Positions 11,701 through 16,884 of a DNA stretch of 54,234 nucleotides are shown here, piece by piece. The position numbers and the translations under genes are program-made. Within the stretch, counting starts at the first letter, position 1. Each line of letters opens with the position of its first letter. The notes under the pieces were generated by a model, which made no database searches, was not told the origin of the DNA, and saw nothing but the letters and a program-made list of their open reading frames with translations. Origin of the DNA: Deltaproteobacteria bacterium (lineage in GTDB: Bacteria > Myxococcota_A > Polyangia > Haliangiales > J016); NCBI GenBank assembly GCA_003696105.1, contig RFGE01000153.1, positions 1 to 54,234 on the forward strand, written 5' to 3'.

Positions 11701-12315
11701 ATGCGCTTTTGGCTCGCTTTCAGCTGCTTTTTCCGGCTGCTGTTCTTCATGAAGTTGCCGGCCGCGGCCGCCCGCTACTTGCCCGCGGACGCGCTGCCCA
11801 AGGGCTTGCCGGAGCCGGATGCGGACGCGCCCGCGGCGGCGGCCGAGCCCGCGGCGGCCGAGCCCGCGGCGGCCGAGCCCGCGGCGGCCGAGCCCGCGCA
11901 GCCGCGGCGCCCGCCGGCGAACGCGGCCGAGTTGCGCCGCGAGGGCGCGCTCGCGCTGCTCGGCCTGTTCCAGCGAGAAGGCCGCCTCGTCGACTTCTTG
12001 CAGGAAGCGATCGACGACTACGACGACGCCGACGTCGGCGCGGCCGCACGCGACATCCACCGCGGCTGCAAGAAGGCGCTCGACGACCACGTGCGCCTCG
12101 AGCCGATCATGCCCGGTAACGAAGACGACACCGTCACGATCAAGCCGGGCTTCGATCCGGGCGAGATCCGCCTGTCGGGCGACGTGTCCGGCGAGCCGCC
12201 GTTCACCGGCGTCCTCCGCCACCACGGCTGGCGCGCGGTCGAGGTCAACCTGCCGGTGCTCGGCGACCAGGTCGATCGGAGCGTGATCGCGCCGGCCGAG
12301 GTCGAAATCGGCTGA
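11701..12315 (+). CDS. DUF2760-type protein preceding Hsp70 genes
   Basis: A 204-residue protein. The N-terminus is hydrophobic (RFWLAFSCFFRLLFFMKLPA) and may be a membrane-peripheral helix. An Ala/Glu/Pro repeat linker follows at about 40-65, and then a compact domain with REGALALLGLFQREGRLVDF, DIHRGCKKALDDH, GNEDDTVTIKPGFDPGEIRL and a closing beta-rich segment. This matches the DUF2760 family as I recall it, which co-occurs with Hsp70-like genes. Here the stop is one base before the Hsp70 start. It is probably a partner or client-binding subunit of the downstream chaperones (inference). The ATG at 11701 is preferred over one at 11662 because it begins at the conserved aromatic segment. Confidence 0.85.
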   Translation: MRFWLAFSCFFRLLFFMKLPAAAARYLPADALPKGLPEPDADAPAAAAEPAAAEPAAAEPAAAEPAQPRRPPANAAELRREGALALLGLFQREGRLVDFLQEAIDDYDDADVGAAARDIHRGCKKALDDHVRLEPIMPGNEDDTVTIKPGFDPGEIRLSGDVSGEPPFTGVLRHHGWRAVEVNLPVLGDQVDRSVIAPAEVEIG

Positions 12316-12316
12316 C

Positions 12317-14104: not shown

Positions 14105-16884
14105 GCGACCGCCCGCGCTACATCATCGGCATCGACCTGGGCACGACCAACACCGCGGTCGCCTACGTCGACACGCGAGCGGCCGACCCGCGCGTGCGCG
14201 TGTTCGACGTGCCGCAGCTCGTCGCGCCCGGCCAGCTCGAGCCGCGCCGCCAACTGCCGTCGTTCGTGTACCTCGCCGGCGAGCACGATCTGTCGCCGGC
14301 GGAGACGGCGCTGCCGTGGGCTCCCGACCGGCGCCAGGTGGTCGGCGAACTGGCGCGCGCGCAGGGCGCGCGGGTCGCCAGCCGGATGGTCGCGTCGGCC
14401 AAGTCGTGGTTGTGCCACGGCGGCGTCGACCGCAACGCGCCGATTCTGCCGTGGGGCTCGGACTCGCCCGACAAGCTGTCGCCGGTGGCGGCGTCGGCGC
14501 TGGTCTTGCGCCACGTGCGCGAAGCGTGGGACCACGTTCATGCCGGCGAGCCGGACGCCGCGTTCATCGATCAGGAGATCGTCGTCACCGTCCCCGCGTC
14601 GTTCGACGAGGCGGCCCGCGAACTGACCGTGCGAGCGGCCGAGAGCGCCGGCATCTCGGACGCAATTCTGCTCGAGGAGCCGCAAGCCGCGTTCTACGCG
14701 TGGATCGAGTCGCATCCGGGCGACCTGCGCAAGCGCGCGCTGCAGCCGGGCGACCGCGTGCTGGTGTTCGACATCGGCGGCGGCACGACCGACTTCACGC
14801 TCATCGCGGTCGGCGACGGCGACGAACTCGAGCGCACCGCGGTCGGCGACCACCTGCTTCTCGGCGGCGACAACATCGACCTCACTCTCGCCAAACAGAT
14901 CGAAGCGCGCATCGTCGAACGCCGCGGCAAGAAACTGGACGCGCTGCAGTGGCACGCGCTGGTGCACGCGTGCCGGCTCGCCAAGGAACGACTGCTCGGC
15001 GACGACTCCGTCGACCGCGTTCCGATCGCGGTGGCCGGACGCGGCTCCAAGCTGATCGGCGGCACGATCAAAGAGGAGATCGACCGGTCGCAGCTCGAGG
15101 CGACCGTGCTCGACGGCTTCTTCCCGCTGGTGGATGCGGGCGCGGTGCCGGTGCGCGCGCGCGGCGGCTTGCAGGAGTTCGGCCTGCCGTACGCGGCCGA
15201 CCCGGCCGTCACCCGCCATCTGGCGCACTTTCTCGCGCGCCACGGCACCGGCCAGGTCGATGCAGTGCTGTTCAACGGCGGCGCGATGACGCCGGCGTCC
15301 CTGCGGCGCCGCGTGCTCGCGCAGATCGAGCGCTGGCAGCCCGACGCCGGCGCGCCGCGCGAACTCGCCAACGACGTGCCGGAGCTGGCGGTCGCCAAAG
15401 GCGCGGCGTACTACGGCCTGGTGCGGCGCGGGCTCGGCGCGCGCATCCGCGGCGGCACGCCGCGGTCGTTCTACGTCGGAGTCGGAGCCGCCGCCGGCGC
15501 CGCCGACGACGGCCCGATGGCGGTGTGCCTGGCGCCGCGCGGGCTCGACGAAGGCGCCACCGTGGAGTTGCCGCGCGACTTCACGCTCACGACCAACCGG
15601 CCCGTGAGCTTCAAGCTGTACTCGTCGACCACCCGCCGAGACGAGCCGGGCGCCATCGTGCGCGCGGGCGACGGCGATCCGGATAGGACCGACGACGACA
15701 GCGACCTGCTCGAGCTGCCGCCGATCGTCACCGTGTTGCGCGCGCCGGGCCGGTCGACCGCGCACGTGCGGTTGCAGGTTCACGTGACCGCGCTCGGCAC
15801 CCTCGAGCTGTGGTGCGTCGAACACACGCCTCCGGCCGGCAAGGAGCCGGAGCGCTGGCGGCTGTCGTTCGACATGCGGTCCGGCGGTGCGGCGCGGCGC
15901 GACGACGCGCCGGCCGGCGAGATCGACGACGCCACGCGCGACGCGCAGGCGTTCGTTCGGCGCGTGTTCCGCGGCGAGGACGACGTCAAGCCCGCGCAGC
16001 TGATGCGCGCCCTCGAAAAGCGGCTCGACCTGCGCCGCGACGAGTGGAGCCTCACCGTGTCCCGCGCGCTGTTCGACGCCGCGCTCGACGTCGAGGGCGC
16101 GCGCGAGCGGTCCGCGGAGGTCGAGGCGCGGTGGCTGAACCTGTGCGGGTTCACGTTGCGGCCCGGCCACGGCGCGCCGCTCGACGACTGGCGCTGCAAG
16201 CAGATGTGGCGCGTGTTCAACGAGGGGCTGGTGCACGACCGCGCCGAGCAGTGCCGGCTCGCCTGGTGGATCGCGTGGCGGCGGATCGCCGGCGGCCTCA
16301 CCAAAGGCCAGCAGGAGCAGATCTACGACCGGCTGGCGCAGCTGTTTCTGCCCGGGCCGAAACAGAAGGCCAAGTGGCACAAGGTCAAGCCGACCAAGCA
16401 GGAGGCCGCCGAGATGTGGCGCGTACTCGCCAACCTCGAGCGCATCGACGCCGACCGCAAGGCCGCGCTCGGCGACGAGCTCGTCGACCGGCTGCAGAGC
16501 CGGAAGGCGCGGTCGGAGGCGACCTACTTTTGGGCTCTCGGCCGCATCGGCAACCGCGCGCCGCTGTACGGGCCGCTCAACGCGGTCGTGCCCGCGGCGC
16601 GCGTCGAACGCTGGATCGAGCGCCTGCTCGAGGTCGACTGGCCGGCGCCGGAGCTGGCGGCGTTTCCGCTCGCGCAGCTCGGCCGCCGCACCGGCGATCG
16701 GGCGCGCGACATCGACCCGGCGCTGCGCGAACGGCTCGCGGCGCGGCTCGAAGCGGCCCCCAACGGCGAGCGGTGCGCGCGGCTGGTCCGCGAGGTCGTG
16801 TCGCTCGAAGCGCGCGAGGAGCGCGTGGCGCTCGGCGACTCGCTGCCACCGGGCCTGCGGCTCGTCGCCGACGACGCCGCGTAG
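14101..16884 (+). CDS. Hsp70 family protein with long C-terminal extension
   Basis: A 927-residue paralogue of the preceding Hsp70. ATPase motifs are intact: GIDLGTTNTAVAYVD near residue 9, VFDIGGGTTDFTLIAVGDG near 222, LGGDNIDLTLAKQIEARI and FNGGAMTPASL near 390. The extension beyond about residue 620 is helical and includes TKGQQEQIYDRLAQLFLPGP and FWALGRIGNRAPLYGPLN. It resembles the DUF3731-type region known after Hsp70 domains. The GTG at 14101 overlaps the previous stop, giving clear translational coupling; an upstream ATG at 14065 inside the previous gene is less likely. The two Hsp70s and the DUF2760 protein probably act together, but the substrates are unknown. Confidence 0.93.
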   Translation: MSDRPRYIIGIDLGTTNTAVAYVDTRAADPRVRVFDVPQLVAPGQLEPRRQLPSFVYLAGEHDLSPAETALPWAPDRRQVVGELARAQGARVASRMVASAKSWLCHGGVDRNAPILPWGSDSPDKLSPVAASALVLRHVREAWDHVHAGEPDAAFIDQEIVVTVPASFDEAARELTVRAAESAGISDAILLEEPQAAFYAWIESHPGDLRKRALQPGDRVLVFDIGGGTTDFTLIAVGDGDELERTAVGDHLLLGGDNIDLTLAKQIEARIVERRGKKLDALQWHALVHACRLAKERLLGDDSVDRVPIAVAGRGSKLIGGTIKEEIDRSQLEATVLDGFFPLVDAGAVPVRARGGLQEFGLPYAADPAVTRHLAHFLARHGTGQVDAVLFNGGAMTPASLRRRVLAQIERWQPDAGAPRELANDVPELAVAKGAAYYGLVRRGLGARIRGGTPRSFYVGVGAAAGAADDGPMAVCLAPRGLDEGATVELPRDFTLTTNRPVSFKLYSSTTRRDEPGAIVRAGDGDPDRTDDDSDLLELPPIVTVLRAPGRSTAHVRLQVHVTALGTLELWCVEHTPPAGKEPERWRLSFDMRSGGAARRDDAPAGEIDDATRDAQAFVRRVFRGEDDVKPAQLMRALEKRLDLRRDEWSLTVSRALFDAALDVEGARERSAEVEARWLNLCGFTLRPGHGAPLDDWRCKQMWRVFNEGLVHDRAEQCRLAWWIAWRRIAGGLTKGQQEQIYDRLAQLFLPGPKQKAKWHKVKPTKQEAAEMWRVLANLERIDADRKAALGDELVDRLQSRKARSEATYFWALGRIGNRAPLYGPLNAVVPAARVERWIERLLEVDWPAPELAAFPLAQLGRRTGDRARDIDPALRERLAARLEAAPNGERCARLVREVVSLEAREERVALGDSLPPGLRLVADDAA

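What the first reader, a model, noticed from the sequence alone, without database searches (positions are those of the whole stretch)
11701..16884. DUF2760-Hsp70-Hsp70 operon with a large unknown C-terminal module
The three genes have gaps of 1 and -4 bases. Both Hsp70s keep their ATP motifs but neither has a classical lid or tail, and one carries about 300 extra residues. No DnaJ or GrpE is adjacent. The DUF2760 protein with a hydrophobic N-terminus could recruit the pair to the membrane, making this a dedicated, undescribed chaperone system.
Basis: partly seen in the sequence, partly recalled or inferred. Interest (0 to 1): 0.52.

Follow-up and report, generated by a model that had tools for sequence, protein, structure and literature searches.

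The report
J-protein-free membrane Hsp70 pair module
Three neighbouring genes encode two unusual Hsp70-type ATPases and a membrane-tethered helper that bacteria from many phyla keep or lose together; both Hsp70s have lost most of the site where Hsp70s normally receive their J-protein partner, which points to a little-studied kind of chaperone machine.

Summary
In detail: DUF2760 (11701-12315), a 595-aa Hsp70 (S70) and a 927-aa Hsp70 (L70) lie on one strand with gaps of +1 and -4. The 'unknown' C-terminal module is Pfam DUF3731; no paper in the library searched names DUF2760 or DUF3731. The set is obligate: of 235 genomes, S70 and DUF2760 occur in the same 38, DUF3731 in these plus one 88%-complete genome. 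In 15 of the 38, L70 lies apart from or divergent to DUF2760, yet co-occurrence holds. It repeats in 299 Pseudomonadota (21 with both, one with DUF2760 alone). Both Hsp70s keep the nine ATPase-site residues listed, yet the linker/J-docking site is rewritten (D393, L391 and Q378 equivalents kept in 0 of 95). No J-domain gene was found beside them, whereas 7 of 13 other Hsp70s of this genome have one within 1 kb. DUF2760 has an N-terminal hydrophobic helix, replaced by transmembrane-like segments in other phyla. Best reading: a membrane-tethered, J-protein-independent Hsp70 pair. Chaperone activity and contacts are untested. Myxococcus L70 is almost certainly MXAN_5323, whose published knockout lowers sporulation and peroxide survival.

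The parts
11701..12315 (+). DUF2760 protein, 204 aa (ATG start)
   Evidence: Pfam PF10816 E 3.3e-50, 169.5 bits vs cut-off 25; model mean pLDDT 86.6, pTM 0.59
11704..11748 (+). N-terminal hydrophobic helix of DUF2760 (residues 2-16), presumed membrane contact
   Evidence: helix 2-16 in the model; homologues carry one or two transmembrane-like segments there
11923..12312 (+). folded DUF2760 domain (residues 75-204): helical hairpin plus small beta part
   Evidence: conserved Q91, R95, D98, D109, H174, E200
12317..14104 (+). S70: short, lidless Hsp70, 595 aa
   Evidence: PF00012 E 2.7e-17; PDB-sequence hits are Hsp70s; hhalign to a DnaK/HscA profile over residues 7-449
13670..13684 (+). S70 linker RIRGG (residues 452-456) in place of the DnaK hydrophobic linker ending in D393
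14101..16884 (+). L70: long Hsp70, 927 aa (GTG start overlaps the S70 stop by 4 bases)
   Evidence: PF00012 and PF12531; model mean pLDDT 87.2, pTM 0.86
14101..15435 (+). L70 nucleotide-binding domain (residues ~1-445)
15442..15456 (+). L70 linker RIRGG (residues 448-452)
15463..15879 (+). L70 beta sandwich resembling SBD-beta (residues ~455-593)
   Evidence: beta strands; VIA-align range through residue ~591 against DnaK/BiP
15928..16833 (+). L70 all-alpha C-terminal region (residues ~610-911) in place of the lid
16111..16863 (+). Pfam DUF3731 match inside L70

Best explanation
A self-contained, J-protein-independent Hsp70 machine at the inner membrane. S70 and L70 are a pair of related, divergent Hsp70s that bind and (inferred) hydrolyse ATP and keep an SBD-beta-like domain, but have no classical lid and a rewritten linker and J-docking site. 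DUF2760 is inserted in, or lies on, the cytoplasmic membrane by its N-terminus and presents a cytosolic domain that (inferred) takes the J-protein's role: it recruits S70 and sets its ATPase cycle. L70, with the helical DUF3731 domain where the lid would be, works with S70 (inferred) as holder/lid or exchange partner for clients near the membrane, useful in oxidative stress and sporulation. Shown: genes, obligate co-occurrence, kept ATPase residues, changed J-site, missing lid in S70, membrane-directed DUF2760. Inferred: contacts, ATPase activation by DUF2760, client handling.
For: Co-occurrence: S70 profile in 38 of 235 genomes, DUF2760 in the same 38, DUF3731 in those 38 plus one; Pseudomonadota, 299 genomes: DUF2760 22, DUF3731 21, both 21. 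It holds when genes are apart: by my tabulation, 22 of 38 adjacent on one strand, 15 apart or divergent, 1 (G234) interrupted by a contig end. J-site: D393 kept in 0 of 95 sequences and in 11 of 11 references that have the segment; N170 equivalent is E in 95 of 95; Q378 equivalent is Y/F in 92 of 95; D8, T11, K70, P143, E171, D194, G198, T199, D201 kept in 95 of 95. Alignment-free check: hydrophobic-D linker motif in 0 of 85 S70/L70 that could be anchored, 6 of 6 such references. J genes: 7 of 13 other Hsp70 loci of this genome have a J-domain within 1 kb (my comparison); none on this contig; phmmer 0 of 121 sequences, positive control 6 of 8. DUF2760: N-terminal transmembrane-like segment in 35 of 81, two or more in 21. 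Fold: L70 aligns to DnaK 7kru_A with Z 36.6, rmsd 4.2 over 466 residues. Literature: MXAN_5323 (925 aa, as L70 in three Myxococcus species) does not replace E. coli DnaK; its deletion lowers peroxide survival and sporulation (PMC8265645).
Against: No interaction, ATPase or chaperone test exists. R167, the residue bound by the HPD aspartate, is still R in 20 of 45 L70 (3 of 50 S70), so L70 might keep some J contact. Positions aligned to DnaK I438/V440 are mostly charged in S70 (alignment less sure there), so peptide binding by the beta domain is doubtful. In this genome's group the DUF2760 N-helix is short, not a full transmembrane span (window: best 19-residue mean 1.58). Exceptions: one genome with DUF3731 alone, one with DUF2760 alone, and among 20 hand-picked S70-bearing genomes 3 lack DUF3731 and 2 lack DUF2760 (many are MAGs, completeness not given). 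A Ser/Thr kinase family recurs within ~20 kb in 11 of 30 genomes and was not tested against background, so a further partner is not excluded. The knockout phenotype is mild and shared by five mutants.
Confidence: 0.55

Rival explanations
1. An Hsp70-Hsp110-like pair: S70 is the working Hsp70 and L70 is mainly its nucleotide-exchange partner and holdase; DUF2760 only tethers the pair.
For: Two related Hsp70s always together; L70 carries a long helical C-terminus; yeast Sse1 (Hsp110) is among the Foldseek matches.
Against: The Sse1 matches rank below many DnaK/BiP rows and reflect the shared Hsp70 core; no Hsp110-specific feature was tested. Both proteins keep the ATPase residues examined.
Confidence: 0.2
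2. Not a chaperone: an Hsp70-derived ATPase switch or scaffold at the membrane, using the actin-like domain for regulated assembly, with the beta domain used for partner docking.
For: Positions aligned to DnaK I438 and V440 are charged in most S70 sequences; no lid in S70; the MreB model also matches weakly.
Against: The SBD-beta-like part is strongly conserved in S70 and predicted as a DnaK-like fold in L70; the only mutant known behaves like other Hsp70 mutants (PMC8265645).
Confidence: 0.15
3. A conventional Hsp70 pair that uses J-proteins and GrpE encoded elsewhere in the genome.
For: 19 J-domain and 2 GrpE matches exist in the genome; R167 kept in 20 of 45 L70.
Against: Linker, D393, N170 and Q378 equivalents replaced in all 95 sequences; a Myxococcus L70 does not replace E. 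coli DnaK (PMC8265645), though that test could fail for other reasons.
Confidence: 0.12
4. A mobile stress- or phage-defence module.
For: The operon lies on a conjugative Bradyrhizobium plasmid, and DUF2760-S70 lies among annotated anti-phage genes on a Thiodictyon plasmid; distribution is patchy.
Against: DUF2760 matches only 11 of 72,556 plasmid records, most of them large replicons; 144 flanking proteins from 68 loci show no common family; PADLOC has no match for DUF2760 or L70 and only a weak partial S70 match.
Confidence: 0.05

Closest known systems
E. coli HscC with membrane-anchored J-proteins DjlB/DjlC (PMC8215388, passages read)
   Same: specialised Hsp70 with a dedicated, membrane-anchored partner encoded nearby
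   Different: the partner here is DUF2760 with no HPD motif (0 of 81), two Hsp70s instead of one, linker and J-site rewritten
DnaK-DnaJ-GrpE
   Same: actin-like ATPase domain with the catalytic residues examined, beta sandwich (L70 model)
   Different: no lid in S70, other linker, J-docking positions replaced, no J or GrpE gene adjacent
HscA-HscB
   Same: dedicated Hsp70; best NCBIfam match is HscA, but S70 has 89.5 bits against a cut-off of 708.55
   Different: no Fe-S genes recur beside it, J-site changed, lidless
Hsp110/Sse1 and the yeast Ssz1-Zuo1 complex (features of Ssz1 recalled, no call)
   Same: atypical Hsp70s working in pairs; Ssz1 is recalled as lidless
   Different: eukaryotic; no membrane tether of the DUF2760 kind; no sequence link tested beyond the Hsp70 core
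MXAN_5323 of Myxococcus xanthus (PMC8265645)
   Same: almost certainly the L70 orthologue: 925 aa, as L70 in three Myxococcus species read here (a fourth has 924)
   Different: studied alone; in the sections and passages read the paper does not mention DUF2760, DUF3731 or an S70 partner

Membership tests
Canonical Hsp70 (DnaK type) | ATPase residues D8, T11, K70, E171, D194, T199, D201 | tested here: met
   95 of 95 S70/L70
Canonical Hsp70 (DnaK type) | substrate-binding beta sandwich | tested here: met
   L70 model aligned through residue ~591 to DnaK/BiP; S70 by sequence alignment only
Canonical Hsp70 (DnaK type) | helical lid (SBD-alpha) | tested here: not met
   S70 ends after the beta domain; L70 has DUF3731 there. 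Whether DUF3731 is a distant lid relative was not tested
Canonical Hsp70 (DnaK type) | hydrophobic linker ending in D393 | tested here: not met
   D393 in 0 of 95; 11 of 11 references that have the segment
Canonical Hsp70 (DnaK type) | J-domain docking residues (R167, Q378, L391 and others) | tested here: not met
   Q378 and L391 equivalents kept in 0 of 95; but R167 kept in 3 of 50 S70 and 20 of 45 L70
Canonical Hsp70 (DnaK type) | GrpE-binding surface | not tested
   -
HscA / DnaK as NCBIfam equivalogs | curated score cut-off | tested here: not met
   S70 89.5 bits vs 708.55 for HscA; L70 70.2 vs 822.55 for DnaK
HscC | own family score or tree position | tested here: inconclusive
   E. coli HscC falls with the references, not with S70/L70, in FastTree (support 0.83 for the split); no HscC model was scored
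J-domain protein (for DUF2760) | J-domain with HPD motif | tested here: not met
   HPD in 0 of 81; no DnaJ family match
Pfam DUF2760 | score over the gathering cut-off | tested here: met
   169.5 vs 25 bits
Pfam DUF3731 | score over the gathering cut-off | tested here: met
   300.3 vs 25 bits
Hsp110 | exchange-factor activity on a partner Hsp70 | not testable with these tools
   needs biochemistry

The most novel reading that the evidence does not exclude
A distinct class of bacterial Hsp70 machine in which the J-protein is replaced by a membrane-anchored protein without a J-domain (DUF2760) and the lid by a helical DUF3731 domain, with two obligately paired Hsp70s: an Hsp70 cycle evolved away from J-proteins.
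Probability: 0.4. Interest if true: 0.82.

Novelty: new variant of a known kind. Interest (0 to 1): 0.62.

Why it matters
Hsp70s are usually described as machines driven by J-proteins; the review read here (PMC8215388, passages) lists three bacterial types, DnaK, HscA and HscC. A widespread, obligate set with intact ATPase residues but a rewritten J-site would suggest that the Hsp70 engine can be run by another activator, give two unknown Pfam families (DUF2760, DUF3731) a shared, testable role, and account for part of the many uncharacterised Hsp70s of myxobacteria and planctomycetes.

Tried and rejected
Conserved extra partner: clustering of neighbours in 30 genomes of the phylum gave one recurring family, Ser/Thr kinases in 11 of 30 genomes; this phylum is recalled to be very rich in such kinases and no background test was made, so it was set aside, not excluded. 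In 80 named loci no further family is in more than 10 loci, those mostly Myxococcaceae. Pfam scans of 144 flanking proteins from 68 of 80 loci (11 near-duplicates dropped by hand, one locus without a called S70 gene; proteins under 80 or over 900 aa or with a weak coding score dropped) found no family in more than 4 proteins, the top ones being TPR repeats (only the 25 commonest families per batch are shown).

Known fold for DUF2760: Foldseek best E 1.2 and VIA-align best Z 4.7; PDB sequence search best E 0.94. This finds no known relative but does not show a new fold. DUF3731 was never folded or searched alone; Hsp70 rows filled the lists.

Defence system: weak. Phage origin: 25 of 50,697 phage records match, none over 80% of L70; the ten rows shown cover at most residues 6-444.

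Tree: FastTree without YegD puts S70 plus L70 apart from 11 reference Hsp70s (support 0.83, branch 2.28); S70 is a clade (0.85), L70 is not recovered as one. With YegD included and midpoint rooting the supports were lower and unclear. An IQ-TREE run timed out. Not used as main evidence.

Literature: full-text searches for DUF2760, DUF3731, 'DNA-K related protein' and MXAN_5322 to MXAN_5325 and broader ones found only the Myxococcus paper as bearing on this set; subscription papers and preprints are not in that library.
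Full report
What is there. The window is the whole contig C153 of a 5.34-Mb, 98%-complete genome. On the + strand lie DUF2760 (11701-12315), a 595-aa Hsp70 called S70 here (12317-14104) and a 927-aa Hsp70 called L70 (14101-16884), with gaps of +1 and -4 bases. Pfam gives DUF2760 3.3e-50, HSP70 2.7e-17 for S70, and for L70 HSP70 5.6e-19 plus DUF3731 1.8e-89. So the 'large unknown C-terminal module' is a known domain of unknown function.

It is a set, not a coincidence. In 235 genomes drawn from the phylum, DUF3731 occurs in 39, DUF2760 in 38 and an S70 profile in 38 (each with exactly two hits, S70 and L70); the last two lists are the same 38 genomes, and the 39th DUF3731 genome (G127) is 88% complete. 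From the coordinates I count 22 of 38 with DUF2760 and L70 adjacent on one strand, 15 with them more than 5 kb apart, on other contigs or divergent, and one (G234) where a contig end cuts L70. Thus co-occurrence does not depend on linkage. In 299 Pseudomonadota DUF2760 is in 22 and DUF3731 in 21, all 21 shared. Among 20 genomes picked by hand because a neighbour of S70 was missing or distant in the fetched locus, 17 have DUF3731 and 18 DUF2760: 3 and 2 exceptions.

Spread. DUF2760 lies directly upstream of S70 in 54 of 69 loci with room (5 of the 15 misses have an overlapping upstream DUF2760 frame that my cut-off rejected), and L70 directly downstream in 50 of 74. Apart from Ser/Thr kinases in 11 of 30 genomes of the phylum (no background test), no other family recurs widely. 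The three genes also sit among conjugation genes on a Bradyrhizobium plasmid.

The Hsp70s. L70 folds confidently (mean pLDDT 87.2, pTM 0.86): ATPase domain ~1-445, beta sandwich ~455-593, then an all-alpha region ~610-911. VIA-align matches residues ~4-591 to DnaK/BiP (e.g. 7kru_A Z 36.6, rmsd 4.2, 466 aligned). S70 was not folded; it aligns to L70 and DnaK and stops after the beta domain.

J-site changed, ATPase kept. On an alignment of 50 S70, 45 L70 and 12 references, D8, T11, K70, P143, E171, D194, G198, T199 and D201 are kept in 95 of 95. The review PMC8215388 (passages) says that the hydrophobic linker and D393 drive coupling, that the J-domain HPD contacts L391, P419, R167 and Q378, and that D481, D326, K414 and D148 belong to the network. 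Here D393 is kept in 0 of 95, L391 in 0 of 95, Q378 in 0 of 95 (Y/F in 92), the N170 equivalent is E in 95 of 95 (the role of N170 in J binding is recalled, no call), and D148 is kept in 1 of 95. R167 is kept in 3 of 50 S70 but 20 of 45 L70, which weakens the case for L70. Alignment-free, the hydrophobic-D linker motif is found in 0 of 85 S70/L70 and 6 of 6 references that could be anchored (10 S70/L70 and 6 references could not); an RI-x-GG-like motif replaces it in 72 of 85. Residues in the beta part (P419, I438, V440, D477) rest on a less certain alignment.

No J-protein beside it. In this genome 7 of 13 other Hsp70 loci (those above ~260 bits) have a J-domain match within 1 kb (my comparison), and grpE-dnaK-dnaJ lie together on C182. 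Contig C153 has none. A phmmer scan with four E. coli J-domains found none in the window and 120 related loci but found 6 of 8 control loci.

DUF2760. Its model has an N-terminal helix (2-16), a low-confidence Pro/Ala-rich stretch and a folded domain 75-204; no relative was found in the PDB. Of 81 homologues 35 have a transmembrane-like segment before the domain and 21 have two or more; myxobacterial, Burkholderiales and acidobacterial proteins mostly show a short F..R..LAF..FFR.L helix instead. A few of the 81 are truncated at contig ends or extended upstream by the frame caller (G206 scores from such an extension). HPD occurs in 0 of 81. By eye, basic residues on both sides of the two-helix form suggest that both ends are cytosolic.

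Link to the literature. In M. eversor, M. llanfairpwllgwyngyll... and M. dinghuensis L70 is exactly 925 aa from its first ATG (924 in M. qinghaiensis). This is the length given for MXAN_5323, the one oversized protein among the six M. xanthus Hsp70s tested (PMC8265645; abstract, sections 5-9 and passages read). Of two Myxococcus genomes searched, G236 has no other Hsp70 frame over 925 aa, and G235 has two longer open frames (1161 and 1441) whose likely counterparts in G236 are 799 and 561 (pairing by score is mine). The identity is thus an inference from length, class and distance; the M. xanthus protein itself was not fetched. The paper reports for the MXAN_5323 mutant no obvious effect of heat, cold or osmotic stress, lower sporulation and peroxide survival, and for the gene peroxide induction and no rescue of an E. 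coli dnaK mutant. The other hsp70 mutants share the sporulation and peroxide effects, so this is weak evidence for a specific role.

Verdict. A real, conserved, essentially undescribed three-part Hsp70 system. The membrane tether and J-independence are supported by sequence; the chaperone cycle is inference.

Noticed in passing
window 12317-14104, residue 177 of S70: The position equivalent to DnaK R151 is R in 49 of 50 S70 and 45 of 45 L70 but T in this window's S70 (alignment); a lineage-specific change at a strongly conserved site.
   Followed up: no
window 5408-9158 and loci L051, L058, L066, L075: A Ser/Thr protein kinase family recurs near the module in 11 of 30 genomes of the phylum, in L075 lying between S70 and L70; may be background of kinase-rich genomes.
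   Followed up: no
window 9163-11609: Upstream on the same strand lie a TPM-domain protein, an unmatched 289-aa protein and a LemA-family protein; these did not cluster with neighbours of the module elsewhere.
   Followed up: partly
L173 (Candidatus Thiodictyon syntrophicum plasmid pTs485): DUF2760-S70 without an adjacent L70 lies among genes annotated as anti-phage (DUF1156, phospholipase D-like) and a TIR protein.
   Followed up: no
G144 contig C128, 1494-1667 (-): A second, partial DUF3731 match (58 positions, E 1.2e-12) about 2.8 kb from the complete one, perhaps a decayed copy.
   Followed up: no
G221, contigs C284 and C164: DUF2760 and L70 are divergent neighbours while S70 sits on another contig, so even the usual DUF2760-S70 pair can be separated.
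   Followed up: partly
own genome, contigs C182, C74, C210, C63, C293, C335, C283: Seven other Hsp70 paralogues each sit within 1 kb of a J-domain match, suggesting several dedicated Hsp70-J pairs in this genome.
   Followed up: partly
L091 and L101: Records titled 'Klebsiella pneumoniae' (MAG) and 'Comamonas sp. KCTC 72670' carry copies that look planctomycete- or Myxococcaceae-like (L101 encodes a 925-aa L70 starting MRIVGIDLGT as in Myxococcus), so the titles may be wrong.
   Followed up: no
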